DNA from: a virus
Virus record (IMG/VR): IMGVR_UViG_3300033571_018267
Span: 1 to 60,722 of that record
Length of the DNA stretch: 60,722 bases
Strand: one strand, 5' to 3'
Shown: in pieces, positions 6,055-45,953 of the stretch
How positions within the stretch are numbered: the first letter of the stretch is position 1
Layout: each line of letters opens with the position of its first letter
The notes under the pieces: generated by a model
The model's database searches: none
Seen by the model: only the letters and a program-made list of their open reading frames with translations
What the model was told of the DNA's origin: nothing
Translations under genes and position numbers: made by a program

Positions 6055-6218
6055 AGCCCATCAAAATAGGAACAAGATTCAAGGATTGTGACGGCGTGAA
6101 GTGGAAAGTTTATACAAAAGTGGGTGATCGTCAATGGAGTTGCTTGCCGGTGAGTGACAACTCGCGCCCTTTTACTATATTCACGGAAACCCAGATTCAG
6201 GAGTATTTGAGCAAATGA
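6051..6218 (+). CDS. Small hypothetical protein (55 aa)
   Basis: The frame begins MKPIKIGTRFKDCDGVKWKV and ends EYLSK. It starts in the ATGA overlap with the preceding stop, and its own stop overlaps the next ATG. This coupling plus a protein-like composition (alternating strands, SH3-like KPIKIGTRFKDCDGVKW) makes it a likely gene. No family is recognised. Confidence 0.55.
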   Translation: MKPIKIGTRFKDCDGVKWKVYTKVGDRQWSCLPVSDNSRPFTIFTETQIQEYLSK

Positions 6219-6562
6219 CAAAAATTAAATTAATGACTGATTATGGCTGTTACCCATTATGGTGGGCAGATGGCGACAAAGTTGGTAACATTGACCCAGC
6301 CAAACTGCCCCTCAGCCAAGAGACCGCCGCACGGCTACAAAAATGGGCGGACAGCTTTGATGACGGATTAGACTGGGACGATCCGGGTAATTCCCCAAGT
6401 CCAACCCCAGAGGAATTAGCAGCTTTTGAGAGGGAAGGTATTAGCCTATGGGAGCAACTGCAACAAGAACTCGCGCCTAATTACGAAGTTGTTTATTTTA
6501 GTCAGATATTGGGCAGGATCATGACTGGCGTAAATGAATTAGAAGAGGTGGATTATGGCTGA
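6215..6562 (+). CDS. Hypothetical acidic protein
   Basis: This 115-residue acidic protein starts MTKIKLMTDYGCYPLWW and contains the helical LSQETAARLQKWADSFDDGLDWDDP. The pattern occurs in many uncharacterised bacterial and phage proteins whose role is unknown. It is the last gene of this early cluster, 50 bases before a terminator. Confidence 0.6.
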   Translation: MTKIKLMTDYGCYPLWWADGDKVGNIDPAKLPLSQETAARLQKWADSFDDGLDWDDPGNSPSPTPEELAAFEREGISLWEQLQQELAPNYEVVYFSQILGRIMTGVNELEEVDYG

Positions 6563-7022: not shown

Positions 7023-8129
7023 ATGACAAAACATCTTATAAGGCATTACGGAAAATACATTTATCGTCACGAGGATTACCAGGCAATATGCCAAGGCGAT
7101 GATTGTGCATCCCAGATACTTAGTCTTTTCGAGTTCTGGACTATTTGTAGGATAGAAGAAATCAAGCGAGTAGAAAGCTACAACGAGCAAAACAAAAGGA
7201 GTAAAGCGCATCTGTTGCAGACACCAGATTTATGGCTATACGAAACTATGGAAGATATAAGTGGTGGCATGATTAACGCTTACGGTGATTCTTCTATAAG
7301 AAAATCGCTCAAAAAGCTTATTGCATGGGGATTTATTGATTCCCGAAAATCGAAAAATGATTTTGACAGAACTAAGGAATACAAGTTTAATACTGAGTCA
7401 ATTCAATCATCACTAGATCAGTGGTGGAACGCTCAAAGCATTGGAAATTCCGATCCGGTAAAAACAACGTTCGAGCCGTTAGAAAAAACGTTGGAAACGG
7501 TAAAAACAACGTTCGAGCCGTTAAAAAAAACGCACGAGCCGTTGAATTTAACGTCTGATCTATATTCTCTAAACAGTCTTAATAAACAATCTCTTTTAAC
7601 AGAGGACGAAGGGAGCGAAATTGAATTAAATCCAAATACCGAAGACCCCAACCCAGAATTAATCGCTCCGTTGGTAAATAAGCCAGAATCTTCGCAACCA
7701 ACCGATAACTCAGCCCTGGGGGCAATAATTCCGCCGCCCCGCCCCGCGTCGAGTCACAACAAAGCGGATGAGCTTTTTACTAACCCACGCGAATTTAACA
7801 GCGCAAAAGGAACTTATAAAAGCGCAAGTTCAGATCCTTGGATGTCGTCTGCTCATAACCCCGATAAAGGCTTTTCTGAGTGGCTATTTTCCAAAAGATA
7901 TAAAGATAAGCCTTCAGCTACATTAGCCGATGCTAAAGCCGAAATTAGGAACAGTTGGGAGCGTGCTAGTGACTTATGGGAGGAATACCAATTTGAACTA
8001 CTTAAAAAACAGCAGCGAGTAGAAATCATTGATCCTGTACCAGATGAACCATATAAGCCACAGCAGAAACCAGGGCGCATGACAGAAGAAGCCAGAAACG
8101 AATTTATCCAAAAACTTGCATCTAAGTAG
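7023..8129 (+). CDS. Replication initiator-like protein (lambda O type)
   Basis: This is a 368-residue protein. Residues 1-125 form a winged-helix initiator-type domain (SQILSLFEFW, the helix SIRKSLKKLIAWGFIDSRK). The middle is low-complexity and contains five heptapeptide repeats (PVKTTFE, PLEKTLE, TVKTTFE, PLKKTHE, PLNLTSD). The C-terminal ~100 residues are helical and charged, suited to bind a helicase. The repeats are produced by 21-bp DNA iterons inside the gene, as in the lambda O gene/ori arrangement, and the next gene is a DnaB-type helicase 8 bases downstream. It therefore probably binds the iterons and loads the helicase. The family name cannot be fixed by eye. Confidence 0.7.
   Translation: MTKHLIRHYGKYIYRHEDYQAICQGDDCASQILSLFEFWTICRIEEIKRVESYNEQNKRSKAHLLQTPDLWLYETMEDISGGMINAYGDSSIRKSLKKLIAWGFIDSRKSKNDFDRTKEYKFNTESIQSSLDQWWNAQSIGNSDPVKTTFEPLEKTLETVKTTFEPLKKTHEPLNLTSDLYSLNSLNKQSLLTEDEGSEIELNPNTEDPNPELIAPLVNKPESSQPTDNSALGAIIPPPRPASSHNKADELFTNPREFNSAKGTYKSASSDPWMSSAHNPDKGFSEWLFSKRYKDKPSATLADAKAEIRNSWERASDLWEEYQFELLKKQQRVEIIDPVPDEPYKPQQKPGRMTEEARNEFIQKLASK
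7451..7555. other. Putative replication origin: five 21-bp iterons
   Basis: Five consecutive 21-bp units start at 7451, 7472, 7493, 7514 and 7535. They share the core CGAGCCGTT/CGATCCGGT followed by an A-run and ACGTT. They are followed by an AT-rich stretch (7556-7605) that could be the unwinding element. They lie inside the initiator gene and encode its heptapeptide repeats. Confidence 0.7.
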
Positions 8130-8137
8130 GGGAATTT

Positions 8138-9469
8138 ATGGCGACAACACAATTGCAGCTACCACCTCAAAGCATCGAAGCAGAAGAAGCAATTTTAGGC
8201 GGTATCTTATTAGACCCTAATGCGTTAGGGATAGTGTCGGCAATTTTAGAGAAAGAGGCATTTTACCTCAACACTCACCAAACTATTTACCAAGCATTGC
8301 TTGACCTTCATTCACAAAACAAATTAGTTGACAACCGAGAAAATAAACTAATTTTACTTGCCGACCACTTAAGCAACCAAGAACAATTACAGGACGTGGG
8401 GGGGCGAAATAAACTAGCAACACTGGTTGACCGCACAGTTTCCGCAGTCAACATTGACGCGATGGCTCGACTGGTAATGGAGAAATATACTAAGCGGCGA
8501 TTAATTATGGCTGGTAATGCGATCGCTCACGCCGGGCAAGATTCTTGGACTGACCCCGACGATGCAATCCAATTTGCAGAAACTCAAATATTTGAGATAT
8601 CGCAAAAACAGCATGGCGATCGCTACCAGCTTGGTAGTGCTAAAGAAATGGCTATTGAACTATTTGACTACCTTGAATCTGGCAAAATGCAAGGGGTGAA
8701 AATCGGCTGGTATGACTATGAAAACCTAACTGGCGGATTGCATAAAAGTAAGGTGAAGCTAATTGGTGGTGAGTCTTACATGGGGAAGTCTCATACAATG
8801 CTTGCCGAAGCTTATGGGCTGTTACTTCAGGGATTGCCGGTTCTTTATATCAGCCCAGAAATGGACAAAAAACAAGTAAATGCCCGAATGCTGGCGATGA
8901 TTACGGGGATAGATTCAGCAGAATTGCTTGATAACTCCCATAAATATTTAGATCAAATAGTTGATGGCATAGACAAACTTTCAGAACTTCCTTGGAAAGT
9001 CTACGATCACTCCTCTCCTACAGTTGGAACAATTGCATCAACCGTTAGGCGTGCGATAACTGAATTTGGTTGTCCGTTAGGCGCAGTTTATATTGATTAT
9101 TTACAGCAAATACCACTTAGCGGGAAACAACTACTTTCCTATGAAATAGGGCAGGTAGTGAGAGGAATTAGAGACATTGCAAAATATCATGAAGTGCCGA
9201 TTATTCTTGGTTCTCAATTGAACCGAGGCAACGCGAACTCTGAGAATAAGCGACCTACTAAAGATATGCTCCGAAACTCAGGAGAAATTTACGAAATATG
9301 CGATCAAGTAGTGCTACTTTACCGCCCTGGATATTACTCAAAAGATCCATCCGATCAAACTATTGAATTGATAGTTGAAAAGAACCGAGTCACGGGTAAA
9401 TCAGGGACGGCAACCATGTTATGTGATCTCAGAACATCTAAGTTTATGAACTTGAAAAAGGGGTATTGA
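8138..9469 (+). CDS. dnaB: DnaB-family replicative helicase
   Basis: This 443-residue protein starts with the DnaB N-terminal domain (PPQSIEAEEAILGGILLDPNAL, residues 9-30), which is the most diagnostic segment. The RecA-type core has a Walker A variant GESYMGKS (211-218), a Walker B-like VYIDYLQQ, and the H4-type sensor ILGSQLNRG near 357. It would unwind the phage origin as a hexamer loaded by the upstream initiator. The length is close to bacterial DnaB (~450). It is 8 bases after the initiator gene, so the two form a replication cassette. Confidence 0.92.
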   Translation: MATTQLQLPPQSIEAEEAILGGILLDPNALGIVSAILEKEAFYLNTHQTIYQALLDLHSQNKLVDNRENKLILLADHLSNQEQLQDVGGRNKLATLVDRTVSAVNIDAMARLVMEKYTKRRLIMAGNAIAHAGQDSWTDPDDAIQFAETQIFEISQKQHGDRYQLGSAKEMAIELFDYLESGKMQGVKIGWYDYENLTGGLHKSKVKLIGGESYMGKSHTMLAEAYGLLLQGLPVLYISPEMDKKQVNARMLAMITGIDSAELLDNSHKYLDQIVDGIDKLSELPWKVYDHSSPTVGTIASTVRRAITEFGCPLGAVYIDYLQQIPLSGKQLLSYEIGQVVRGIRDIAKYHEVPIILGSQLNRGNANSENKRPTKDMLRNSGEIYEICDQVVLLYRPGYYSKDPSDQTIELIVEKNRVTGKSGTATMLCDLRTSKFMNLKKGY

Positions 9470-10542: not shown

Positions 10543-12049
10543 CGACGATCTAACACCCTGGAATCCCGCTTATTTTGGACACACAGATTTCCAAAAAGAA
10601 TCCGATGGGCAACTAACCATTTTCTTTGAAGATGCCCACGAACCACCAGACCCCGACGATTTCGCCAGTATCGCAGACTACGAAATCGCCTGGACTGAAC
10701 GGGAACAAACACAAACTTTACCACAAGAGGACACGATTATGAATTTTCAACTAACAACACCATTTGACAGCGAAATCGAACAACTCAAAGCTAGATTGGC
10801 AGAACTAGAAACACAAAAACACCGCGTCTCTACCTGTGCAAATAGGATTGTTGAACAGGTTGGGGAATGCGTTATTGAGATGAAAGAAGCGGGGGTGAGT
10901 AATGGAATTTTGAGCAATTGGGCGTGTGTGATTTACAAAGAAATAACAGGTGAAGATGTCCCCGCGCTGAGTAACTCGGATGTTTTGAAAGGTGCAATCG
11001 CATGGGAAGAAAAGTATAAAGAAGCGCGTCAAAAAGTAGTGGAATCAGTGGCTTTGTGCAAATTCTTCGCACTTGAAAACCAAAAAATAAAAGAAGAACT
11101 CCAAAAACTGCAATCTGGCAATAGCAAGGACACAGAAGAACCGTTTAAAATTGATTTGCTCAAAAAAGTTTCTGATTTAACTATTGAGCGTGATACAGCA
11201 TTGGAAAGATTAGCGGAACTGGAAAAACTAAATGCCAGTAATGCGCGGGGGATTGCACAACTTTCTGTAGCCAATCAGGAATTATGCGAGAAATTAGATA
11301 AGCTAAATAAACCTGAAGAATTAGAGGAAAGCTCCAGCCCCAGTCAAAACGATATTCCTGTGGGAGTGCGTGTAGAAGTGGCAGATCCAGCATACTCAAA
11401 TTATCCACGCGGAATAGTGGCTGCTGTATCAGATGACGGCGTATCCGTGCATTTTCACAAGACAGATGAAACCGAGGAAGAAACAGTTATTTTCCCTGCA
11501 TCTTCCCTTAATGTCATCCCCAAAGATCCCGGAGAGGAAGCCCAAGAAATAGTATCAGAATTTCTCAGAAAACTTGACAGAATTAGCCGCGTTGACAAAC
11601 TGGATTGGGTGAAAATTAAAGAACTACCCCTCAACATTGAAACCATGCGGGAATTAGGATTGCAAGCAAAACCCAAGTCCAAAACGCATAGTTATTTGCT
11701 AGAACAAATGCCCGTAATATGTGCTAGTTATGTCAGTGAAACAGGCGATAGATCAGACTTAGAATGGTTGCCCAAGCACTTTGTCGAAAGGGTGGAATAT
11801 TTGCTCAAAATAGAGGCGTTGGGCAGTGCCAGCCATGAATCAACTGGTGAGGAAGAAGAATCAAAAAAGCCTCCTCGGTCTACGTCCCTTTCTGAAGCAA
11901 AGCCGACTATCCAGCGTGGTGATAGCGTCCGTCACTTGGTATATGGGGAGCGCACAGTCTTAGATGTTAACGGCGAATGGATCAACGTCAAGGATCCAGA
12001 CGGATTAACCGATATGTGGAATATTTCAGATGTTGAATTAGTTGCATAA
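10535..12049 (+). CDS. Coiled-coil protein with C-terminal Tudor/KOW-like segments
   Basis: This is a 504-residue acidic protein. Residues 65-100 and 195-250 are coiled coil (EIEQLKARLAELETQ; ERDTALERLAELEKL). Two small beta segments follow: PVGVRVEVADPAYSNYPRGI near 270-320 and GDSVRHLVYGERTVLDVNGE at the C-terminus. Both have the alternating pattern of Tudor/KOW-like domains in which a modified position or structure is read. An internal ATG (10740, MNFQLTTPF) could start a shorter product. The function is unknown; it is co-transcribed with the replication genes. Confidence 0.55.
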   Translation: MTDDDLTPWNPAYFGHTDFQKESDGQLTIFFEDAHEPPDPDDFASIADYEIAWTEREQTQTLPQEDTIMNFQLTTPFDSEIEQLKARLAELETQKHRVSTCANRIVEQVGECVIEMKEAGVSNGILSNWACVIYKEITGEDVPALSNSDVLKGAIAWEEKYKEARQKVVESVALCKFFALENQKIKEELQKLQSGNSKDTEEPFKIDLLKKVSDLTIERDTALERLAELEKLNASNARGIAQLSVANQELCEKLDKLNKPEELEESSSPSQNDIPVGVRVEVADPAYSNYPRGIVAAVSDDGVSVHFHKTDETEEETVIFPASSLNVIPKDPGEEAQEIVSEFLRKLDRISRVDKLDWVKIKELPLNIETMRELGLQAKPKSKTHSYLLEQMPVICASYVSETGDRSDLEWLPKHFVERVEYLLKIEALGSASHESTGEEEESKKPPRSTSLSEAKPTIQRGDSVRHLVYGERTVLDVNGEWINVKDPDGLTDMWNISDVELVA

Positions 12050-13854: not shown

Positions 13855-15262
13855 ATACAACATCCCTGAATCCTACAAAGATTTTTTAACAGAATGTTGT
13901 CGCATCCGTTCGGGTAATAAATTTATCCCATTCCTGCCCTATGAGTATCAAGTGGTTATTTCCGATTTGATAGACAAGCATAGGGGCGTTATCGCATTTA
14001 AAACTAGACAGATGGGGGCTACCGAGTGCATAAGTGCTAAGTTTCTCCACAAAGCGTTATTAAATCCTGCTTATGCTGCGGCTGTGATGTCATTGGGGCA
14101 AAAAGAATCATCGAACGTAGCGACACGGATACAGGCGATGCCGTCAAATGTTCCTAATTTGGCGTTCCTGACTAAATCTAAAACTGAGATTCATTTTCAG
14201 GATGCGGGTAAGATTTGGTTTAGACCAGCGACGGATAACGCCACGCGATCGCTAGAATCAATTTCAGATTTACTATTTGATGAGGCCGCATTTCCCCAAA
14301 ACTTTGAGGAAATTTATTCAGCGTCCGCACCGTCACAAGAGGCGGTAGGGGATGAAGCGCGGACGATAATTGCATCTACCATGTCAGAACTTGGTAAACT
14401 CTCAAGATTTTGGCAGATATTTGACGACGCGAACCCAGTAGACGCAGATGAAATGGTGAACCGCGTCAAGGAAGGGAAGGAAGAACCGTGTACTCACTGG
14501 GTAGATGCAAACGGATGGGCTAAAGTAATCTTGCACTGGAGAGCGCATCCAGTTTATGTATCAATACCCGATTACCTGCAACGGACCAAGGACAAACACA
14601 AGCTAACCGACTCAAAGTTACAACGGGAATACAATCTGGGTATTCCTGCTTTTGGCGGGTCCCTATTTAATCCTGAAGCGATATCAGCTTGTGCAGTTGG
14701 TAGTTGGGAGTTGCCAAAACCCGGACGGCATTATTTGTCCATGCTTGACCCTAACTTTGGCGGTAGTGATTTCTGGGAGTATCTGATTTTGGATATTACG
14801 GAATTGCCTTATACCATCGTCGCGGAGTACAGGGAACAGAACCGACAATCAACATTTTGTGTAGAGAAAACTTTAGAATTATCTGATATTTATAAACCGC
14901 TGATGATGGTAATTGAGCATAATAGCGGCGGTGCCGTAATTGCTGAAAAGATTATCAAAACCAGACCGGAATTAAGAGTGGAAACTGTGAATACGTCCCG
15001 TGTCTCCAAAGTCCAAAATACTGACCGCATGGCGTTGATGATTGAACGGGGTGAGATTAATTATCCCCTTGACTGGGCTGGTATTGGGGAAATGAAAAAC
15101 TTTGGATTGCAAGACAGACGCGCAATTTCTGGGCATGACGACGCTGTTATGTGCCTTGCTATTGGGTTGGCTAAATTAGATGAGGCACTAAAACTCAGGG
15201 GCAACGAAATGGTGGGAGAATTGGGGACTGTAATACAGCCTCAGAAACGGCGGTTTAGGTGA
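13817..15262 (+). CDS. Terminase large subunit
   Basis: This is the packaging ATPase/nuclease of about 481 residues. The Walker A-type segment is FKTRQMGATECISA and the Walker B is LLFDEAAF with the following catalytic E. The C-terminal RNase H-like nuclease carries acidic residues in MLDPNFGG, VIEHNSGG and GHDDAVMCLAIG. The TTG at 13817 (then TPTEIATNQRNKYN) is the likeliest start, because the 16 upstream in-frame codons overlap TerS and look unrelated. The fold is that of gp17/T4-like terminases. Confidence 0.9.
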   Translation: MTPTEIATNQRNKYNIPESYKDFLTECCRIRSGNKFIPFLPYEYQVVISDLIDKHRGVIAFKTRQMGATECISAKFLHKALLNPAYAAAVMSLGQKESSNVATRIQAMPSNVPNLAFLTKSKTEIHFQDAGKIWFRPATDNATRSLESISDLLFDEAAFPQNFEEIYSASAPSQEAVGDEARTIIASTMSELGKLSRFWQIFDDANPVDADEMVNRVKEGKEEPCTHWVDANGWAKVILHWRAHPVYVSIPDYLQRTKDKHKLTDSKLQREYNLGIPAFGGSLFNPEAISACAVGSWELPKPGRHYLSMLDPNFGGSDFWEYLILDITELPYTIVAEYREQNRQSTFCVEKTLELSDIYKPLMMVIEHNSGGAVIAEKIIKTRPELRVETVNTSRVSKVQNTDRMALMIERGEINYPLDWAGIGEMKNFGLQDRRAISGHDDAVMCLAIGLAKLDEALKLRGNEMVGELGTVIQPQKRRFR

Positions 15263-31085: not shown

Positions 31086-31222
31086 TTTTGTAGTTTTTCG
31101 TAAGCAGACGGGCCTATGCTAAATGCAACTTTATATGTTGCCGATTTTGCTTTTGGAGGTCTACCACCTAAGTTTTTCCGGTGGTATTGGTTTAGGCAAC
31201 CTTGACAAGTTACCTCTTTACT
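31086..31222 (-). pseudogene. Broken copy of the 30085 gene
   Basis: About 120 bases match the 30165-30290 part of the 91-residue gene at high identity, including the segments for CQGCLNQY, GGRPPKAES and YKVAFS. There is no complete frame and the C-terminal part is missing. It looks like a direct duplication that decayed, now acting only as leader for the operon. Confidence 0.65.
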
Positions 31223-31249
31223 ATAACTAAACTATTACCAGTTTGTCAA
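31221..31249 (-). promoter_or_regulatory. Promoter with half-operator (copy C)
   Basis: On the leftward strand TTGACA (31249-31244), a 17-base spacer beginning AACTGGTA and TTATAG (31226-31221) repeat the arrangement of copies A and B. Only the left arm of the palindrome is conserved. It would drive the 31083-30085 operon. Confidence 0.6.
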
Positions 31250-32865: not shown

Positions 32866-32995
32866 TTTAAGAAAACCAGCGATCGCTAAAACATTGGAAG
32901 AATAGATGGTTAAGCTACTGGTGAAATTAGCAAAAGTTCCGTTTTAAATAGCCATTTTTCTGCAATAATAATGTTAGTTAATCCTCAAAAATAAA

Positions 32996-33511
32996 ATGAA
33001 CAACAATTATGGAATGCCTCAAACACGAGACAAATGTTATGGTATGTCCGCTTGCCTTACTTACTGGGCTTTTAAATGCCGTGACAGAAAACGCAGCCCA
33101 GCGATGGGTGCTAAAACATGGACTTACTTGGAATCCAGTATCAGAAATTCGGCGGAAATATCAACTAATTTAGAGGATTATTTGCAGCGACTTTGTGATA
33201 AACTTTGTTCACAATTACGCCCAGTTGAATTAACAAAAATAATTCAACCTACTCAAAGAATCCTGCGAGTAAATGAAGACGCTACGGAAATTAAAGAACT
33301 TCCCATTGACCAAAATCTTGTATTTATGGGATGGTTGGATTTAATTGCTGACATTCAACCACACGGATTTACAGAGTGGGATGTACTTGAATTATTGCGA
33401 ACTAAAGCAGGAATCATTCAAGTAATTTGCAGGTTACGATTCGAGGAAGATCGTAGTTTAGGGTTGGATGAGCCAGAGGAATTTATAGAAGTTGAGGTGA
33501 CAAATGTTTGA
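32996..33511 (+). CDS. Putative type IV-B small subunit (Cas11-like)
   Basis: This is a 171-residue helical protein (MNNNYGMPQTRDKCYGMSAC; EISTNLEDYLQRLCDKLCSQ). It has no catalytic motif. It is the first gene of a tightly packed operon whose next members look like Csf2, Csf3, CysH and Csf1. Known type IV-B loci contain a small helical Cas11 at this kind of position, where it lines the belly of the crRNA-binding filament. The call is mainly from context, and it could also be an unrelated accessory gene. Its stop overlaps the Csf2 start by 8 bases. Confidence 0.5.
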   Translation: MNNNYGMPQTRDKCYGMSACLTYWAFKCRDRKRSPAMGAKTWTYLESSIRNSAEISTNLEDYLQRLCDKLCSQLRPVELTKIIQPTQRILRVNEDATEIKELPIDQNLVFMGWLDLIADIQPHGFTEWDVLELLRTKAGIIQVICRLRFEEDRSLGLDEPEEFIEVEVTNV

Positions 33512-34634
33512 TAATTACAATGTTTTTGACCGTGAAAGATTGACTCTACATTGTGTGATTACAGCACAAACACCCTTATCACATATTGGGGAAGTGTCGG
33601 GAAATGTGAGCAACTTAAAAACACTAAAGTTACTTGATTTTGAAGGCAATCCTAGAAGTGTTTTCACCTATTCTGGTAATGCCTTGAGAAATGGATTGTT
33701 GCGGCGTGTTGGTGTGGCTGCGGCGTTAACTGAATTAGGGTTGCAAGTGAATCCTGATACACACCATACAATGTTTGCGGGTGGCAGAATTGATGCGGGT
33801 ACAGCTTCAGACATGGAGCTTGACAAAAAGATCCGGGTTTTAATGCCTTGGCTGTCGGTTCTGGGGACTGCTAAACCTGCCAAAGTTTTCGGCTCTAAAG
33901 ACGCTCAAATGGTGCAAGGCAGAATCAATGTAGGCTCTGCTTATTTGGCTTGCTATGAGTCAGCAGAATACATCTACAACCAGATACCAGCGATACTACC
34001 ACCGGAAATACAACCAGCTATTCAGAAGCTAATTGAAGCTAAAAATAGATTATCTTCAGACCCTTTTATCCCTACAAAGTCTGAGGACTTAGATAACTGG
34101 AATCAGGCAAAAAATGATTATTTGCCTTTAATTAGAAAGGTGATGAAAACTTGGACTGAGTATTTGACGATTGATCAAACTACTCGCAGGGATGCAACTT
34201 TAGACCCCAATTTAATTAAATTTCTGCCCACAGAGGTTCAGGCGCAATTAAAAGGCGACGGCACGGCTAAAGAGAAAAAATCAGATCAGATGATTGCTTC
34301 TGATAGATTAATTATGCCAGGAGCAAAACTATACTCAAGATGGGACTTGAACTGCACCAAAGTCGAACAAGGTTGGATTTTTGATACTTTGTTAAAATTT
34401 GCACAGTTCCCATATTTGGGCGGTAAAGGCAATCGTGGCAATGGTCGCGTTAGCATAAATTTCTGGTTTAGTTCCGAGTCAGAACGCGGATTATTGTGGA
34501 GCTCTGAAAGTGGTGTAGAGAGCGATAGATTCAATCTTGCACACGCTAAATACAGGGAGTATATCAGTCAATATCAACAGTTTTTAGGTGAGGCTAGAAC
34601 ATCAACTGAATTAAGGAGTTTGTTAGGTGGATAA
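33504..34634 (+). CDS. csf2: Csf2 / Cas7-type RAMP backbone protein (type IV-B)
   Basis: This 376-residue RAMP-superfamily protein starts with a ferredoxin-like strand-helix unit (RLTLHCVITAQTPLSHIGEV), has the Cas7-type element TYSGNALRNGLLRR, and ends with a glycine-rich loop (YLGGKGNRGNGRVSINFWF) typical of RAMPs. In type IV systems Csf2 multimerises along guide RNA. The start overlaps the upstream gene and the stop overlaps csf3 by 8 bases. No Cas6-like or nuclease subunit is in the operon, as expected for IV-B. The family is assigned by motif and by the neighbouring csf genes. Confidence 0.75.
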   Translation: MFDNYNVFDRERLTLHCVITAQTPLSHIGEVSGNVSNLKTLKLLDFEGNPRSVFTYSGNALRNGLLRRVGVAAALTELGLQVNPDTHHTMFAGGRIDAGTASDMELDKKIRVLMPWLSVLGTAKPAKVFGSKDAQMVQGRINVGSAYLACYESAEYIYNQIPAILPPEIQPAIQKLIEAKNRLSSDPFIPTKSEDLDNWNQAKNDYLPLIRKVMKTWTEYLTIDQTTRRDATLDPNLIKFLPTEVQAQLKGDGTAKEKKSDQMIASDRLIMPGAKLYSRWDLNCTKVEQGWIFDTLLKFAQFPYLGGKGNRGNGRVSINFWFSSESERGLLWSSESGVESDRFNLAHAKYREYISQYQQFLGEARTSTELRSLLGG

Positions 34635-35316
34635 CTTAAAAATAACGGCACATTTAGCAACATCTTTAGGAGCTTATGATAACTGGAGTCCGTCGCTAGA
34701 AGGTATTTTGGTGTATAGGCTTTTAGAAGAAAATAGTCTGCTTTCACCTAATCCCACGCCGGATCAAGTAGCAGAAACCAAAGAGTTTATTGAGCAGAAT
34801 TTACCACTAAAGCAAGGTGTCATTAAGTCAGAGAAATATTGGTGCGTGAGTTCACCTTGCTATGTTTTGCAGGGTGAAGCTACAGACAAATATAGAAAAC
34901 GATGGGATAATCACGAAAACAATTTAGACTGGGGTAAGCGCAAACCTAAGTTTTTAACAGGTGAAGGTGCGGAAAAATCCTATGATTTACCGCTTTACAC
35001 AAGGTCAATCAACTCTATTTCTTGGTTTGCTGTGGGCGATAAAACGGCAATCAAAAATCTTTTGTCGTCTGTTACTCACATTCAGAAAAAGCGTAGTTAC
35101 GGCAATGGTGAAGTCAGGGAATGGGAAATAGGGATAATTTACGATGATTATCATCTGTGGCGTGATAATAAATTAATGCGTCCTATTCCTGTTAGATTAA
35201 TTGATCGAAAAATAGATAATCCTCAGATGGTTTGGGGATGGAGAAGCCCCGCTTGGTTGGCAGCAAATAAAGAATTGTGCTATATGCCAAAGGATAGCGT
35301 GATTTATGCTAAGTAA
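34627..35316 (+). CDS. csf3: Csf3 / Cas5-type RAMP protein (type IV-B)
   Basis: This is a 229-residue protein. It begins with a RAMP strand (LKITAHLATSLGAYDNWSPS followed by LEGILVYRLL), a pattern typical of Csf3. It carries a glycine loop near 155-170 (HIQKKRSYGNGEVREW) and a C-terminal RPIPVRLI strand. Cas5-type subunits cap the 5' handle end of a guide complex. The gene overlaps csf2 by 8 bases and the CysH-like gene by 11 bases, so the five-gene operon is translationally coupled. Confidence 0.75.
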   Translation: MDNLKITAHLATSLGAYDNWSPSLEGILVYRLLEENSLLSPNPTPDQVAETKEFIEQNLPLKQGVIKSEKYWCVSSPCYVLQGEATDKYRKRWDNHENNLDWGKRKPKFLTGEGAEKSYDLPLYTRSINSISWFAVGDKTAIKNLLSSVTHIQKKRSYGNGEVREWEIGIIYDDYHLWRDNKLMRPIPVRLIDRKIDNPQMVWGWRSPAWLAANKELCYMPKDSVIYAK

Positions 35317-36052
35317 CGGATCTGGCGTTCAATATCCCTGGTTAAAAAAGAAAATAATCAGGGCAAAAGACTCAATTAAAATCTGGCTAGAACAATGCAA
35401 TCATCAAGTGTATGCGAGTGTTTCTGGCGGTAAAGATAGCCTAGTGATGTCTCATTTAATCAGGCAGGTTTACCCAGATTGTCCTTTGGTATGGGTAAAT
35501 CAGGGATTGCTTGCCGAATGGGATGATTGCGTTGAGCTTTTAGAGTATTTAAAAACTCAAAACTGGAATATTATTGAACTTTGCCCAGTACGTGATTTAT
35601 GGCATTTATACCTTGATTATGGCGTTCCACTTGAAGGAACAATGGATACAAAAGCCGACAAATTAATTAATCAAAAATTAATTTATGACCCGCTTAATGA
35701 ATACCAAGAATTAAATAATATCAAGGGTTATGCGTGGGGTATTCGTAAGCAAGAAAGCAGGAATAGGGCATTTTACCTTAATAAATATGGTGAAGTGCAT
35801 ACCCTTAAAAATGGGTTGATTTGTTGTTCACCTGTGGCATTTTGGACTACTCAAAATATTTGGGAATACATTGATATGTACTCGTTAAAATATCCTGCCA
35901 TTTATGATGTTGATAGAATGACAGTTAGGAATGGATGCCCAATCGGCACAACAGGTGCTAATTGGGGAAGACTGGCAGAATTAAGAAAGCATTATCCAGG
36001 TATTTATAATCAATTCGTTGTTAAATTCCCGCAAATATCAACCTATGTCTAA
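35306..36052 (+). CDS. cysH: CysH-like PP-loop protein of type IV-B
   Basis: This is a 248-residue adenine nucleotide alpha hydrolase-like protein. The PP-loop is VYASVSGGKDSLVMSHLI, followed by LVWVNQG and the PAPS-reductase-like PVAFWTTQNIWEYIDMY and GCPIGTTG. CysH homologues are the signature accessory of type IV-B loci, where they are not thought to act in sulfate assimilation. Their true reaction is not settled. It lies between csf3 and csf1 with overlaps on both sides, and no other sulfur-metabolism gene is near. Confidence 0.85.
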   Translation: MLSNGSGVQYPWLKKKIIRAKDSIKIWLEQCNHQVYASVSGGKDSLVMSHLIRQVYPDCPLVWVNQGLLAEWDDCVELLEYLKTQNWNIIELCPVRDLWHLYLDYGVPLEGTMDTKADKLINQKLIYDPLNEYQELNNIKGYAWGIRKQESRNRAFYLNKYGEVHTLKNGLICCSPVAFWTTQNIWEYIDMYSLKYPAIYDVDRMTVRNGCPIGTTGANWGRLAELRKHYPGIYNQFVVKFPQISTYV

Positions 36053-36797
36053 CTGCTACCTGTGCGCTAAACCCGGTTCTAATCCCTTGGAATTATCCAG
36101 CACCTTCACAATGCACTCATCAGCTAAATGTCCAGATTCTAAGGTGTTGTGCGATCGCTGTTACTCTACTATTTCTGGTAATCAAAAGCAGCTTTGGTAC
36201 TGGAATGAGGGTAAGAATAAATGGTCTAAATTGTGGGGGCGTTCTTTGTCCAGGGTGTATCAGGGTGATAAATTAATTGCACCAATAATTGAAGGGGAGT
36301 ACACAGAAGGTAAAGATACTTTTTCAATAGTTAAAAACTTAATGACCAGGGTAGAAATTAGAGAATATTTGTTGAATCCCCCTGAACCACCATTTACTAT
36401 CGCTATAGCTGAATCAGGGCAAAAACATATTATTCCTTGGGCGTTAGAAGCGCAAAGCCGGGATCTATTCCCTGCGCAATTTGAGCTTGATACTGTTTAT
36501 ATTGATGATAGATTTAGAGGGTTTTTGCAAGTATATGAGCAATTGATGGGGTTAGGATTTAGTAAAACTGAGATTGATTCAGGGGATTATCGAAGCGATA
36601 GATTGATGAAAGTTTTTGATAAATACTGGGAACTTGAGGATCGTATATCGGGTATTAGGGGGACTAGATTAATGCAATTGATAAGTTATATCGCTCAATC
36701 ACAGGATGTGCCACCAATTGCGGAAATAGTAGAAATTCCTGTAATCCCTGCCCAATCAAAAGTACCTAAAAAGCCATTGCAATTATCTTTGTTTTAA
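36045..36797 (+). CDS. csf1: Csf1-like protein with zinc fingers (type IV-B)
   Basis: This is a 250-residue protein. The N-terminus has C-x2-C pairs (MSNCYLCAKPG; KCPDSKVLCDRCYSTI), matching the zinc-binding start of Csf1. IREYLLNPPEPPFTIAIAES and HIIPWALEAQSRDLFPAQFE follow, with a helical C-terminus. In type IV complexes Csf1 stands in the place of a large subunit. ATG 36045 is preferred (8-base overlap with cysH) over 36018. The C-terminus ends in PLQLSLF, a clamp-like tail also seen in other genes here (31636). Confidence 0.75.
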   Translation: MSNCYLCAKPGSNPLELSSTFTMHSSAKCPDSKVLCDRCYSTISGNQKQLWYWNEGKNKWSKLWGRSLSRVYQGDKLIAPIIEGEYTEGKDTFSIVKNLMTRVEIREYLLNPPEPPFTIAIAESGQKHIIPWALEAQSRDLFPAQFELDTVYIDDRFRGFLQVYEQLMGLGFSKTEIDSGDYRSDRLMKVFDKYWELEDRISGIRGTRLMQLISYIAQSQDVPPIAEIVEIPVIPAQSKVPKKPLQLSLF

Positions 36798-42736: not shown

Positions 42737-42819
42737 ATTATCCAGTCGCGTGATGGTGTTGGTAGCACCGATTCACCACTGGCTGTAGGTCTTGTACACC
42801 CACATTGATATTATTCCCA

Positions 42820-44736
42820 ATGAAAACTATTAAAATCAAGGTCAAACTTTTTGCTGAACAGGCGCAATCATGCGATCGCTACCTAGAAGAATTGACATGG
42901 CTATGGAATCAGGTATTGGCTAATCAATTGCATAACCATTGCATCACCTGGTACAACTGGGCTGGTAAGTTGAGCGCAGATTTAGCTAAGGCGACGGAAA
43001 AGTTAGAGAAGCTAAAACCGGAACAACAGCAGCTTGTTAGGAACTACTACCGCAGCAAAGACAAGCCAAAACTCAACAAAAAAGAACAGGAATTAGTTGC
43101 CAAATTTGATATATTTTCCCGGTGGTTGCCGTTTGACTTAGAAAATATTATTCCCGTACCTTTGCGAGTTGGCAACAGTGGCTACGAGGGCTTATCGTGC
43201 CAGATTGCTACAGGCGGAAGTTACTGGAAACGGGACGATAATTTTAATATTCCAATCAAAACCAAAAAGGGGATTATTCACGTCAAAGGGTCTAAATTGG
43301 TTAAGGGTGATTGCCCCTGGAAACGAATACAAATAACGCCGCATAATTATAAAACTTTTCCCAGTGGTAAGTTTGAGGGGAGGGAATTAATAGATGTGAT
43401 GAAGTTTGATAATTTGAACGGACTAAACGGGCTGAGAGCGATGCAGAATCTACCTGATTTATCCGTTTCCTCGCACTACGTTGGAGGCTTGTTAGAGTTT
43501 TTTAAACAGTCATGGTTAGCGTTTTTAGACCCCAAAAGGGTGAATAGCAGGAAACCAAAGTTCAAAAAAGACGCTGATAAAATTACCACCTTGTCGAATA
43601 ATCAGTGTGCGCCAAATAAGATAGACGTGGCGAATGATTGGATTGATATTACTGGGTTCAATAAGTTGATTGTTGCTGACAAGAACTGGGTTAAAAGATT
43701 AAACATAGACGAGGTTCTACCCAGGACGTATATGCTCACGAAAAAGACATCAGGGTATTACATAAATATCGTCGTTGCTCATCCATTACAAGAAGAAAAA
43801 GCAGCTTTAACAAAGAAATTACTCAAGGTCAAAAAAGAGTTTGGCGAAGATAGTCAAGAGTACGAAGATACTAAGTCTAAAATCAAATTTATTGAACAAC
43901 AAATCAAAGATTCATCAATTACACAAGGTAAGAATTTAAGCGCAGGGATTGACCCTGGGGTACAGGCTACTGTGGCGACGGATCATGGGGCGCTGTTTCT
44001 CCCAAATCTAAGCAGGGAGCGCGTGTCAATCCATATCGAGGAACTACAATCAAAGCTTGATAATCTTGAGTTAATTAATGATAAAAAGTGGAAAGATTCA
44101 GGGCGCAAAGGTACTCGACCTAAGACAAAAAACGAGATTAAGATACAAGATAAAATTACCAGATTGCATGAACGTGGTGCTAATTCTTCTAATGCCTTTA
44201 ATCATAAAATGTCAACTAGATTAAGCAGGACTTACGAGCATATAGCATGGGAAGATACCCAGCTAACTAATCTTCTGAAACAAACAGAAGCTAAAGCATT
44301 ACCTGAAGGCGTGGGATATGCTCACAATGGTGCGTCTGCTAAACGGGGTTTAAATTGGATTATGAGACAAAGATGCTTAGGTGATTTAAAAACTAAAACT
44401 AAGCAAAAAGTTGAGAATAGAGGCGGTAGTTTTCATGAACCACCTGCTAACTACAGTTCTCAATTGTGCCATTGTTGTCATCAAAAAGGTGAACGATTAT
44501 CACAGTATGAGTTTATCTGCAAAAACTCTGATTGTGAGTTATTTGAACAGGTGCAACAAGCTGACACTAATGCTGCTAGAAACCACAAACATAATAGTAG
44601 TTTTGAGCTAGGAGAAGTCAAATATCACAACACTAGATTAATCTATCAGAAACCCAAAAGATTTAAAAAGAAACGCTTGACAAAGCAGATGGTTTTAGTT
44701 AATATTAATTTACCGCAGTTTGGACGGGATGACTAA
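42820..44736 (+). CDS. Cas12/TnpB-like type V effector with intact RuvC
   Basis: This is a 638-residue protein from ATG 42820 (a TTG at 42805 would add five residues). The RuvC acidic residues are present: D378 in AGIDPGVQATVATDHG, E478 in EHIAWEDTQLTNL and D582 in QQADTNAARNH. A zinc ribbon lies between the last two (LCHCCHQKGE, then FICKNSDCELF). The N-terminal ~370 residues are much longer than in TnpB (~200), consistent with a guide-binding REC/WED part. Two CRISPR arrays begin 315 bases downstream. There is no cas1/cas2. This resembles the miniature type V-U class of cyanobacteria; it is not Cas12k, whose RuvC is dead. The exact subtype is unresolved. Confidence 0.82.
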   Translation: MKTIKIKVKLFAEQAQSCDRYLEELTWLWNQVLANQLHNHCITWYNWAGKLSADLAKATEKLEKLKPEQQQLVRNYYRSKDKPKLNKKEQELVAKFDIFSRWLPFDLENIIPVPLRVGNSGYEGLSCQIATGGSYWKRDDNFNIPIKTKKGIIHVKGSKLVKGDCPWKRIQITPHNYKTFPSGKFEGRELIDVMKFDNLNGLNGLRAMQNLPDLSVSSHYVGGLLEFFKQSWLAFLDPKRVNSRKPKFKKDADKITTLSNNQCAPNKIDVANDWIDITGFNKLIVADKNWVKRLNIDEVLPRTYMLTKKTSGYYINIVVAHPLQEEKAALTKKLLKVKKEFGEDSQEYEDTKSKIKFIEQQIKDSSITQGKNLSAGIDPGVQATVATDHGALFLPNLSRERVSIHIEELQSKLDNLELINDKKWKDSGRKGTRPKTKNEIKIQDKITRLHERGANSSNAFNHKMSTRLSRTYEHIAWEDTQLTNLLKQTEAKALPEGVGYAHNGASAKRGLNWIMRQRCLGDLKTKTKQKVENRGGSFHEPPANYSSQLCHCCHQKGERLSQYEFICKNSDCELFEQVQQADTNAARNHKHNSSFELGEVKYHNTRLIYQKPKRFKKKRLTKQMVLVNINLPQFGRDD

Positions 44737-44908
44737 CTTGTTTAGTCTATGGCTTGATGAGTTTAGGCTCAAAAAGCAAGAGAGATGGCGACTACTCTTA
44801 TAGACCAGCCGGAACTATGGCTGGCAGACTCTCAAAGGGATTACCGAACTTGCAATTTTTTGGCGAACCATAAGCGCGGTCAAAAACCTCGGACATTCGC
44901 CAAAATCT

Positions 44909-45051
44909 CAGAACCTAGACAAGCAAAGGGATTAGGGCGGTCTTTGCAGAATATTAAAAGGGATTGAAGCGGCTAAAATAGACTTTTTGATCCGATCTGC
45001 CAAAACAGGCTTCAGGATTCAGCTATGTCAAGGGTTCTAGATCCCGGCTTA
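44909..45051 (+). ncRNA. Leader / tracrRNA-like element 1
   Basis: About 143 bases directly before array 1 are repeated, at roughly 75% identity, before array 2. AAAGGGATTAG (44925-44935) is complementary to CTAATCCCTTT of repeat 1, and TTTGCA (44943-44948) to its 5' end. A second complementary segment, AAAAGGGATT, is at 44956-44965. These anti-repeats suggest a tracrRNA or a leader pairing with pre-crRNA. A 60-codon frame across it is not protein-like. Confidence 0.65.
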
Positions 45052-45752
45052 TTGCAAGGCGGCTAATCCCTTTTAAGGGACTGAAACTTATCACTCATGA
45101 TGTATTGCAGTTTATAGAGTTATTATTGCAAGGCGGCTAATCCCTTTTAAGGGACTGAAACTAGCGCGTTATGCTGATAGTTTGAGTATTTCTCTGATAT
45201 TGCAAGGCGGCTAATCCCTTTTAAGGGACTGAAACTCAGAGTCAGATAACTTATTTATAATATAGCTTAGTATTGCAAGGCGGCTAATCCCTTTTAAGGG
45301 ACTGAAACTTCCGCGTATCCTGTCACCTGTTGCGCTAAATCGAATATTGCAAGGCGGCTAATCCCTTTTAAGGGACTGAAACTAACCTAACCAGAAAAGC
45401 AGATTTGATCATTGAATTATTGCAAGGCGGCTAATCCCTTTTAAGGGACTGAAACTCTTTAAAGCGGCATTTTATTGAGATGGCTGTAAAATTTATTGCA
45501 AGGCGGCTAACCCCTTTTAAGGGACTGAAACTGGGAATTTTCCCTATGGCTTATCTATCTCTTCAGATTGCAAGGCGGCTAACCCCTTTTAAGGGACTGA
45601 AACAGTTCCCTGTCGCTGCAATCATCTAATTGCCAGAACTTGCAAGGCGGCTAATCCCTTTTAAGGGACTGAAACCTTGACAGAAATAGTATTTTATCGG
45701 GTGCATTTCCATTTTCTTGCAAGGCGGCTAATCCCTTTTAAGGGACTGAAAC
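45052..45752 (+). CRISPR. CRISPR array 1: 10 repeats, 9 spacers
   Basis: The 36-nt repeats start TTGCAAGGCGGCTAATCCC and end AAGGGACTGAAAC. They start at 45052, 45126, 45200, 45273, 45347, 45420, 45496, 45568, 45640 and 45717. Spacers are 36-41 nt. Repeats 7 and 8 carry one T-to-C change (CTAACCCC). The repeat contains the hairpin CCCTT-TT-AAGGG. An A usually precedes each repeat, except the last two. No spacer matched the rest of the window by eye. Confidence 0.97.
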
Positions 45753-45811
45753 TTTCATCCATCTGGAAAATTAGCGGGCGGGCGTGGCTAAAACAAACCC
45801 CCGCGCAAATC

Positions 45812-45953
45812 CAGAACCTAGACAAGCGAAGGGATTAGAGCTATCTTTGCAGAATATCAAAAGGGATTTAAGCGGCTGCAATGGACTTTTTGGATTAGCT
45901 CGCGCAAACAGCCTCTAGGATTCAAGTATATCAAGGGTTTCAGGTTGCCGCAC
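45812..45953 (+). ncRNA. Leader / tracrRNA-like element 2
   Basis: This is the second copy of the 44909 element, before array 2. GAAGGGATTAG (45828-45838) pairs with the array 2 repeat CTAATCCCTTC. It has a G exactly where element 1 has A, following the base difference between the two repeats. TTTGCA (45846-45851) and AAAAGGGATT (45859-45868) are also kept. Confidence 0.65.

What the first reader, a model, noticed from the sequence alone, without database searches (positions are those of the whole stretch)
32996..36797. Type IV-B CRISPR-Cas operon with CysH inside a cyanobacterial prophage
Sequence: five overlapping genes encode a helical small protein, two RAMP-fold proteins (glycine loops GGKGNRGNGR and KKRSYGNGE), a PP-loop SGGKDS protein and a protein with paired CxxC. 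Known: type IV-B loci combine Csf1, Cas11, Csf2, Csf3 and a CysH homologue, lack arrays and nucleases, and are mostly reported from plasmids. Inference: the prophage carries a guide-RNA-binding complex of unknown purpose, perhaps directed against competing plasmids or phages. It splits the virion module between head and neck genes. The gene order (small subunit, csf2, csf3, cysH, csf1) differs from orders I recall with csf1 early.
Basis: partly seen in the sequence, partly recalled or inferred. Interest (0 to 1): 0.88.

Follow-up and report, generated by a model that had tools for sequence, protein, structure and literature searches.

The report
Mobile CRISPR cassette in cyanobacterial viruses
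A virus of cyanobacteria carries a complete type IV-B CRISPR gene set, of a kind best known from plasmids, that moves as a block between otherwise unrelated viruses and sits near a second CRISPR system whose stored spacers match rival plasmids, which suggests that these viruses use CRISPR parts to fight plasmids.

Summary
Five overlapping genes at 32996-36797 are cas11, csf2, csf3, a cysH-like gene and csf1 (HMM E-values 1e-5 to 3e-42), all under strong purifying selection (dN/dS 0.02-0.08). This is a type IV-B operon in a temperate cyanophage: terminase, tape measure and integrase are present, and the HIP1 motif occurs 28 times against 0.4 expected. Phage-borne type IV is already known, so that part is not new.

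What the tools add:
(1) The operon is a mobile cassette, shared by viral records whose terminase, head and neck proteins are otherwise unrelated.
(2) Its cysH slot is exchangeable: one relative carries a 29%-identical CysH plus an extra gene inside an operon otherwise 94-95% identical.
(3) A sister group and a Gloeobacter plasmid carry Cas6 in the operon.
Window spacers match Anabaena plasmid pANA03 (33/36) and a primase-like gene (31/37). All seven assessable viral records with this Cas12 also carry IV-B.

Most likely role: an RNA-loaded Csf complex with an exchangeable PP-loop effector, used against competing plasmids. Targeting by IV-B itself is inferred, not shown.

The parts
32996..33511 (+). 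cas11 (type IV small subunit)
   Evidence: PADLOC typeIV_Cas11 1e-5; 63-96% identical relatives in the same slot in all compared records; dN/dS 0.031
33504..34634 (+). csf2 (Cas7-like backbone)
   Evidence: PADLOC Csf2_0_IV 1.8e-36; TIGR03115 8e-8; PDB 7jhy 4e-4; fold matches to type IV-A Csf2 3e-10 and IV-B 7jhy 8e-6 (model pLDDT 73); dN/dS 0.021
34627..35316 (+). csf3 (Cas5-like)
   Evidence: PADLOC Csf3_0_IV 2.9e-42; TIGR03116 3.5e-10
35306..36052 (+). cysH-like PP-loop gene (class A), no C-terminal catalytic cysteine
   Evidence: Pfam PF01507 3.8e-15; model pLDDT 86 matches PAPS reductase 6vpu 6.6e-12; PP-loop and GxR..E..R invariant, no invariant Cys
36045..36797 (+). csf1 (Cas8-like, paired CxxC)
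   Evidence: PADLOC Csf1_0_IV 5.3e-22; TIGR03114 4e-8
32925..36796 (+). extent of the conserved cassette (DNA homology to L005 and L007 starts and stops here)
42805..44736 (+). Cas12/TnpB-like nuclease (V-U2-like), 643 aa, RuvC D/E/D and zinc ribbon present; co-resident with IV-B in related phages
   Evidence: PADLOC Cas12u2 2.5e-53; Pfam Cas12f1-like_TNB 8e-8; motifs GIDPG, WED, DTNAA; co-occurrence
45052..45752 (+). CRISPR array A: 10 repeats of TTGCAAGGCGGCTAATCCCTTTTAAGGGACTGAAAC, 9 spacers
45383..45419 (+). spacer A5, 31/37 to a primase/helicase-like reading frame in cyanobacterial contig G097:C29 (first 24 nt identical)
45604..45639 (+). spacer A8, 33/36 to Anabaena sp. 90 plasmid pANA03
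45954..46134 (+). CRISPR array B: 3 repeats of TTGCAGGATGACTAATCCCTTCTGAGGGATTGAAAC, 2 spacers
44895..44950 (+). possible anti-repeat / tracrRNA-like element upstream of array A (a diverged second copy lies at about 45810-45870 before array B)
   Evidence: 11-nt complement to the repeat with a matching change between A and B; duplex energy only modestly better than shuffles

Best explanation
This is a genuine type IV-B CRISPR-Cas operon carried as a mobile accessory cassette by temperate cyanophages. Most likely mechanism: Csf2 and Cas11 form a type III-like filament on a guide RNA, capped by Csf3 and Csf1; this complex recognises nucleic acid of a competing element; and the CysH-like PP-loop protein, probably an ATP alpha-hydrolase without the reductase cysteine, is the exchangeable effector that acts on the bound target or RNA (for example by adenylylation), silencing competing plasmids in the same cell. 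Shown here: the gene identities, purifying selection, spread of the cassette across unrelated viral backbones, clean exchange of the CysH module, and co-residence with a Cas12 system whose spacers match Anabaena plasmids. Inferred: that IV-B itself is guided, that its target is plasmid nucleic acid, and what CysH does.
For: Identity. Selection: dN/dS 0.021-0.083 over all five genes. Mobility: Csf2 is 59-96% identical in 10 of 11 compared records; in eight of the eleven (G006, G008, G009, G011, G012, G016, G018, G023) the window's integrase, head, neck and tail proteins have no detectable homologue and only G012 has a TerL relative (39%); G023 keeps only remnants of the operon. CysH as plug-in: L009 and L010 are 94-95% identical across the operon except that cysH-A is replaced exactly by cysH-B plus a 230-aa ORF; L015 carries one cas11-csf2 pair with three csf3, two cysH (one of each class) and two csf1. 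The CysH fold is PAPS-reductase-like with an intact PP-loop but no C-terminal catalytic Cys. Guide link: Cas6 inside the operon in L021-L025 and L001; short repeat pair next to csf1 in L013; all 7 assessable viral contigs with this Cas12 carry IV-B. Conflict with plasmids: array spacers match pANA03, pANA02 and pANACY.03 far above shuffled spacers.
Against: The one biochemically studied IV-B complex bound heterogeneous RNA and not co-expressed crRNAs (PMC7937560). The arrays here belong to Cas12, which occurs without IV-B: the sequenced phages with related Cas12 genes have no Csf2 relative. Records with Cas6 in the operon lack this Cas12. No array adjoins the window's operon. The co-occurrence counts come from related cassettes and are not fully independent. 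G023 has lost csf3, cysH and most of csf2 and csf1, so the cassette is dispensable.
Confidence: 0.45

Rival explanations
1. Guide sponge / counter-defence: the Csf filament binds host small RNAs, in particular host crRNAs, and so blinds host CRISPR immunity during infection or lysogeny; Cas6, where present, helps to harvest host crRNAs.
For: Non-specific RNA loading of the Mycobacterium complex (PMC7937560); no array or Cas6 next to most copies here; location in viruses; Cas6 of the MYXAN type carried by L021-L025. Sponging is a published proposal (PMC8175902).
Against: Does not explain the constant presence and the exchange of the CysH module, nor the selection on it and its invariant PP-loop. 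IV-B also sits on plasmids.
Confidence: 0.25
2. Hybrid system: the Csf complex is loaded with crRNAs of the phage's own Cas12 arrays, so that one spacer set serves a Cas12 nuclease and a IV-B silencing complex.
For: All 7 assessable viral contigs with this Cas12 carry IV-B, in several backbones; repeats lie next to csf1 in L013. A IV-B plus V-B3 plasmid locus with a mini-array is published (PMC12669027).
Against: Sequenced phages with related Cas12 lack IV-B; many IV-B records lack this Cas12 (some of them fragments); Cas12-type crRNAs would have to be accepted by a Cas5-like Csf3.
Confidence: 0.15
3. Two independent cargo items: IV-B and Cas12 simply share accessory regions and have separate functions; IV-B has a role outside interference, such as RNA modification or regulation.
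For: They sit 6 kb apart in the window with unrelated genes between; each occurs without the other.
Against: Repeated joint presence in backbones without shared virion genes.
Confidence: 0.15

Closest known systems
Type IV-B CRISPR-Cas of Mycobacterium sp. JS623 plasmid (7jhy; PMC7937560)
   Same: csf1, cas11, csf2 and csf3, with cysH typical of IV-B; no nuclease and no array in the operon; Csf2 sequence and fold similarity
   Different: Carried by phages; order cas11-csf2-csf3-cysH-csf1; Csf2 clade deeply separated from actinobacterial and archaeal plasmid forms; exchangeable CysH and optional Cas6
Fuxivirus (Bathyarchaeia virus) type IV-B (PMC10848311)
   Same: Virus-encoded IV-B with a CysH-like gene beside csf3
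   Different: Archaeal virus; its mini-array is in the IV-B locus itself; no Cas12 reported there
Gloeobacter morelensis plasmid pGMOR1 locus (L001)
   Same: Same overall order, Csf2 51% identical
   Different: Plasmid; has cas6 between csf2 and csf3, a class-B cysH and a cupin gene
Cyanophage vB_AphaS-CL131 V-U2 system (PMC6293099)
   Same: Cyanophage Cas12/TnpB with an array, one spacer to a DNA primase gene
   Different: Only 27% identical Cas12; no IV-B relative found
Actinomyces plasmid with IV-B and V-B3 (PMC12669027, Extended Data Fig. 7)
   Same: IV-B co-located with a type V effector and a mini-array
   Different: Plasmid of an actinobacterium; inactivated Cas12b3, whereas the Cas12 here has all three RuvC acidic residues

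Membership tests
Type IV CRISPR-Cas | Csf2 (Cas7) and Csf3 (Cas5) of the type IV families | tested here: met
   PADLOC 1.8e-36 and 2.9e-42; NCBIfam hits below the curated cut-off (divergent)
Type IV CRISPR-Cas | Csf1 large subunit | tested here: met
   PADLOC 5.3e-22
Subtype IV-B | Cas11 small subunit present | tested here: met
   PADLOC 1e-5, weak alone, supported by position in the relatives
Subtype IV-B | cysH-like gene in the operon | tested here: met
   Pfam 3.8e-15; fold match 6.6e-12
Subtype IV-B | No Cas6 and no DinG in the operon | tested here: met
   Five-gene operon only; but sister loci L021-L025 and L001 do contain Cas6
Subtype IV-B | No CRISPR array | tested here: inconclusive
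   None next to the operon; two arrays 8-9 kb downstream beside Cas12
Subtype IV-B | Csf2 clusters with IV-B in a tree with IV-A and IV-C references | not tested
   My tree had no IV-A/IV-C references; by sequence 7jhy (IV-B) 4e-4 beats 8rc2 (IV-A) 0.42, while the fold search with a medium-quality model ranks IV-A first
Subtype IV-B | Forms an RNA-bound filament | not testable with these tools
   Needs purification and cryo-EM
PAPS reductase (true CysH) | C-terminal catalytic cysteine | tested here: not met
   No cysteine is invariant; the C-terminal tail has none
Type V-U2 / V-F (Cas12 at 42805-44736) | RuvC D/E/D, zinc ribbon, adjacent array | tested here: met
   Motifs, Pfam TNB, PADLOC Cas12u2 2.5e-53, best stretch in the C-terminal half only, arrays
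Temperate cyanophage | Virion genes, integrase, cyanobacterial host signature | tested here: met
   TerL 1e-23, tape measure 2e-38, neck, DnaB; weak integrase match 2.5e-5; partial tRNA at the contig end; HIP1 28 vs 0.4 expected

The most novel reading that the evidence does not exclude
Cyanophages carry a composite class 1 plus class 2 weapon: one phage-encoded spacer set, directed at rival plasmids, serves both a Cas12 nuclease and a IV-B complex whose CysH-like effector is exchanged as a module between phages. That would give type IV-B a defined guide source, target and effector for the first time.
Probability: 0.15. Interest if true: 0.92.

Novelty: new variant of a known kind. Interest (0 to 1): 0.64.

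Why it matters
The function of type IV-B has been open since it was named: no guide source, no target and no role for CysH are known. These phages offer handles. There is a natural swap experiment (two CysH classes on an operon otherwise 94-95% identical), there are sister operons with a Cas6, and a co-resident array has spacers that name the probable rivals (pANA03-type plasmids). The set also shows that IV-B is a cassette that moves between viruses, with a relative on at least one plasmid.

Tried and rejected
True PAPS reductase in a sulfur operon: rejected, no catalytic cysteine and no sulfur genes. Non-CRISPR RAMP: rejected. Array inside or beside the window operon: none found. The 300-nt insert between cas11 and csf2 in L007 looked like a possible array but encodes a small ORF. 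Missing csf3 in L021-L025 was an artefact of my ORF picking; in L023 the gene lies at about 10794-11522. Cas12 stops reported inside relatives lie near the C-terminus, as their ORFs are 622-623 aa, not decay. Rfam finds no RNA relevant to the operon in the window. Spacers against 50,697 phage records: no credible match. Repeat B and this Cas12 in 386 cyanobacterial genomes: none, but the Cas12 search had no positive control. tracrRNA: a short complement exists, but duplex energies are only slightly better than shuffles for arrays A and B and not for L010, so only a lead. PAM: 5' flanks GTT, GTT, GTT, GTC at four protospacers of array-B spacers, but TA-ending for the two array-A ones; too few to claim.
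Full report
OBSERVATION. The five ORFs exist as described. They overlap one another and form one compact + strand operon. Profiles assign them to type IV Cas11 (1e-5), Csf2 (1.8e-36), Csf3 (2.9e-42) and Csf1 (5.3e-22), with the fourth in the PAPS-reductase domain family (3.8e-15). NCBIfam agrees but below its curated cut-offs, so the family is divergent. By sequence the best solved relative of Csf2 is the IV-B Csf2 7jhy. The AlphaFold model of Csf2 is of medium quality (pLDDT 73) and matches type IV-A Csf2 chains first (3e-10), then IV-B 7jhy (8e-6) and Csm3. All five genes are under strong purifying selection (dN/dS 0.021-0.083, window against L005).

CONTEXT. The window is an IMG/VR virus record of 60,722 bases. 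It encodes a terminase, DnaB, a head protein, a neck protein, a tape measure protein in a 4,021-aa ORF, a sigma factor and a weakly matched integrase, and starts with the 3' part of a tRNA gene, as expected of a temperate phage attachment site. GCGATCGC (HIP1) occurs 28 times against 0.4 expected, which points to a cyanobacterial host. The IV-B operon lies in an accessory block between head and neck genes.

RELATIVES AND MOBILITY. Scans of viral contigs gave 24 loci with a Csf2 match. The Gloeobacter plasmid pGMOR1 has a 51%-identical Csf2. Of 386 cyanobacterial genomes sampled only the one used as the centre of the sample, a Spirulinaceae MAG with one such contig, has this Csf2, and the genome-contig scan returned the same contig only. 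DNA homology to L005 and L007 begins at 32925, 71 bases before cas11, and ends at the csf1 stop. In eight of eleven compared records (G006, G008, G009, G011, G012, G016, G018, G023) the window's integrase, head, neck and tail proteins have no detectable relatives, and only G012 has a TerL relative (39%), while Csf2 is 59-96% identical wherever it is present among the eleven. One record (L028/G023) has an internal deletion from csf2 into csf1. The cassette therefore moves between viruses and can be lost.

THE CYSH MODULE. L009 and L010 are 94% identical from upstream of cas11 to the end of csf3 and 95% identical again from the start of csf1, but between these points L010 has cysH-A and L009 has a cysH-B (29% identical to the window's cysH-A) plus a 230-aa ORF of unknown family. 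Class B also occurs in L001, L019, L020 and in the first module of L015. L015 holds one full cas11-csf2 pair (and short fragments of both) with three csf3, two cysH and two csf1. Both classes keep the PP-loop and a GxR..E..R motif, and neither keeps a catalytic cysteine. The class-A model (pLDDT 86) resembles PAPS reductases most (6.6e-12), then other PP-loop ATPases. Loss of the cysteine in CRISPR-associated CysH and the idea of ATP alpha-hydrolysis are published (PMC8175902); the module exchange is, as far as I know, not.

CAS6. L021-L025 carry a Cas6 (2e-49 for L023) between csf3 and cysH, and pGMOR1 one between csf2 and csf3. IV-B is described as lacking Cas6 (PMC7937560, PMC8175902). The L021 record also holds cas6e, cas7e and cas5e genes and two five-repeat arrays with a different repeat.

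THE MISSED CRISPR SYSTEM. At 42805-44736 the window encodes a Cas12/TnpB-like protein (Cas12u2 2.5e-53, best stretch in the C-terminal half; RuvC D, E and D present), followed by a 10-repeat and a 3-repeat array. Relatives have 11 to 28 repeats with mostly different spacers. A scan for this Cas12 gave eight viral contigs: seven also carry IV-B and the eighth is a 7.6-kb fragment. L013 has instead a different V-U2 gene (3e-165) beside csf1 with a short repeat pair between. Related Cas12 genes occur in sequenced phages of Aphanizomenon and Cylindrospermopsis that have no Csf2 relative, and a V-U2 system in CL131 is published (PMC6293099).

TARGETS. Against 72,556 plasmids the spacers hit almost only Anabaena plasmids. 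Without gaps: window A8 33/36 in pANA03; G002 spacers 33/35, 30/35 and 28/38 in pANA03, one of them also 30/35 in pANACY.03; a G004 spacer 28/35 in pANA02; a G008 spacer 29/39 in pANACY.03. Of 20 shuffled sets of 102 spacers, one contained a single spacer at 75% or more to pANA03 and nineteen none. Window A5 matches 31/37, its first 24 bases perfectly, in a contig whose reading frame holds a Walker A motif (GNCGAGKS), read by eye from the sequence, as in plasmid primase-helicases. Two further targets lie in annotated DUF3987 and DUF5906 genes. The spacers therefore point to replication and other genes of plasmids in filamentous cyanobacteria.

MECHANISM. Shown: identity, selection, mobility, CysH exchange, co-residence with a Cas12 system aimed at plasmids. 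From the literature: a IV-B complex forms an RNA-filled Csf2/Cas11 filament, but the Mycobacterium one bound mixed RNA, not crRNA (PMC7937560). Inferred: the same filament forms here, uses guides, and recruits CysH as an exchangeable effector against plasmids. I give this 0.45, against 0.25 for a guide sponge, 0.15 for loading from the Cas12 arrays and 0.15 for unrelated functions.

NOVELTY. Phage-borne IV-B, phage-borne V-U2 and IV-B beside a type V effector on a plasmid are each known (PMC10848311, PMC11656645, PMC6293099, PMC12669027). New as far as I could check: the cyanophage IV-B clade with its gene order, its spread over unrelated viruses, the CysH exchange, Cas6-bearing members, and steady company with a plasmid-directed Cas12 system. 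The papers by Pinilla-Redondo (2020) and Moya-Beltran (2021) were not readable here, so earlier mention of part of this cannot be excluded.

LIMITS. Viral records are metagenome contigs and mostly fragments. PHROGs on G008, one of the unrelated backbones, show DnaB, ParB, anti-repressors and virion-protein matches, but no terminase among the families shown, so that record may be a phage-plasmid. Co-occurrence counts are not corrected for relatedness.

Noticed in passing
window:42805-46134: Cas12 (V-U2-like, RuvC residues intact) with two CRISPR arrays of different repeat type, each preceded by a related element of about 110 bp with a short anti-repeat; spacers match Anabaena plasmids.
   Followed up: yes
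L045:2210-4609 with arrays at 6124-6443 and 14644-14968 (record of L021): Viral contig with cas6e, cas7e and cas5e and two five-repeat arrays, besides a IV-B operon that contains its own Cas6; no cas8e was recognised by PADLOC in the neighbouring minus-strand ORF.
   Followed up: partly
L009:11806-13207: Exact replacement of cysH-A by cysH-B plus a 230-aa ORF of unknown family in an otherwise 94-95% identical operon.
   Followed up: yes
L015:1402-8665: Partly duplicated IV-B locus: one cas11-csf2 pair (plus fragments of both), three csf3, two cysH of different classes, two csf1.
   Followed up: partly
L009:9267-9412: Remnant resembling the upstream region and N-terminus of the Cas12 gene lies just before cas11, a trace of an earlier Cas12 copy or a recombination point.
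   Followed up: no
L028:9493-10431: IV-B operon with internal deletion joining csf2 codon ~50 to the end of csf1; no array was found in this 65-kb record.
   Followed up: partly
L001:11384-11779 and L020:3869-4237: Homologous small genes (annotated as cupin in L001) follow class-B cysH, a possible partner of that CysH class.
   Followed up: no
L014:7198-7430 and 8092-8324: 233-nt direct repeat (91%) upstream of two small ORFs, encoding a recurring GCRPRFVSKKVI-like peptide that also appears in L016:4114-4563.
   Followed up: no
window:30146-30284 and 31086-31224: 139-nt direct repeat (91%) near small ORFs in the accessory block upstream of the operon.
   Followed up: no
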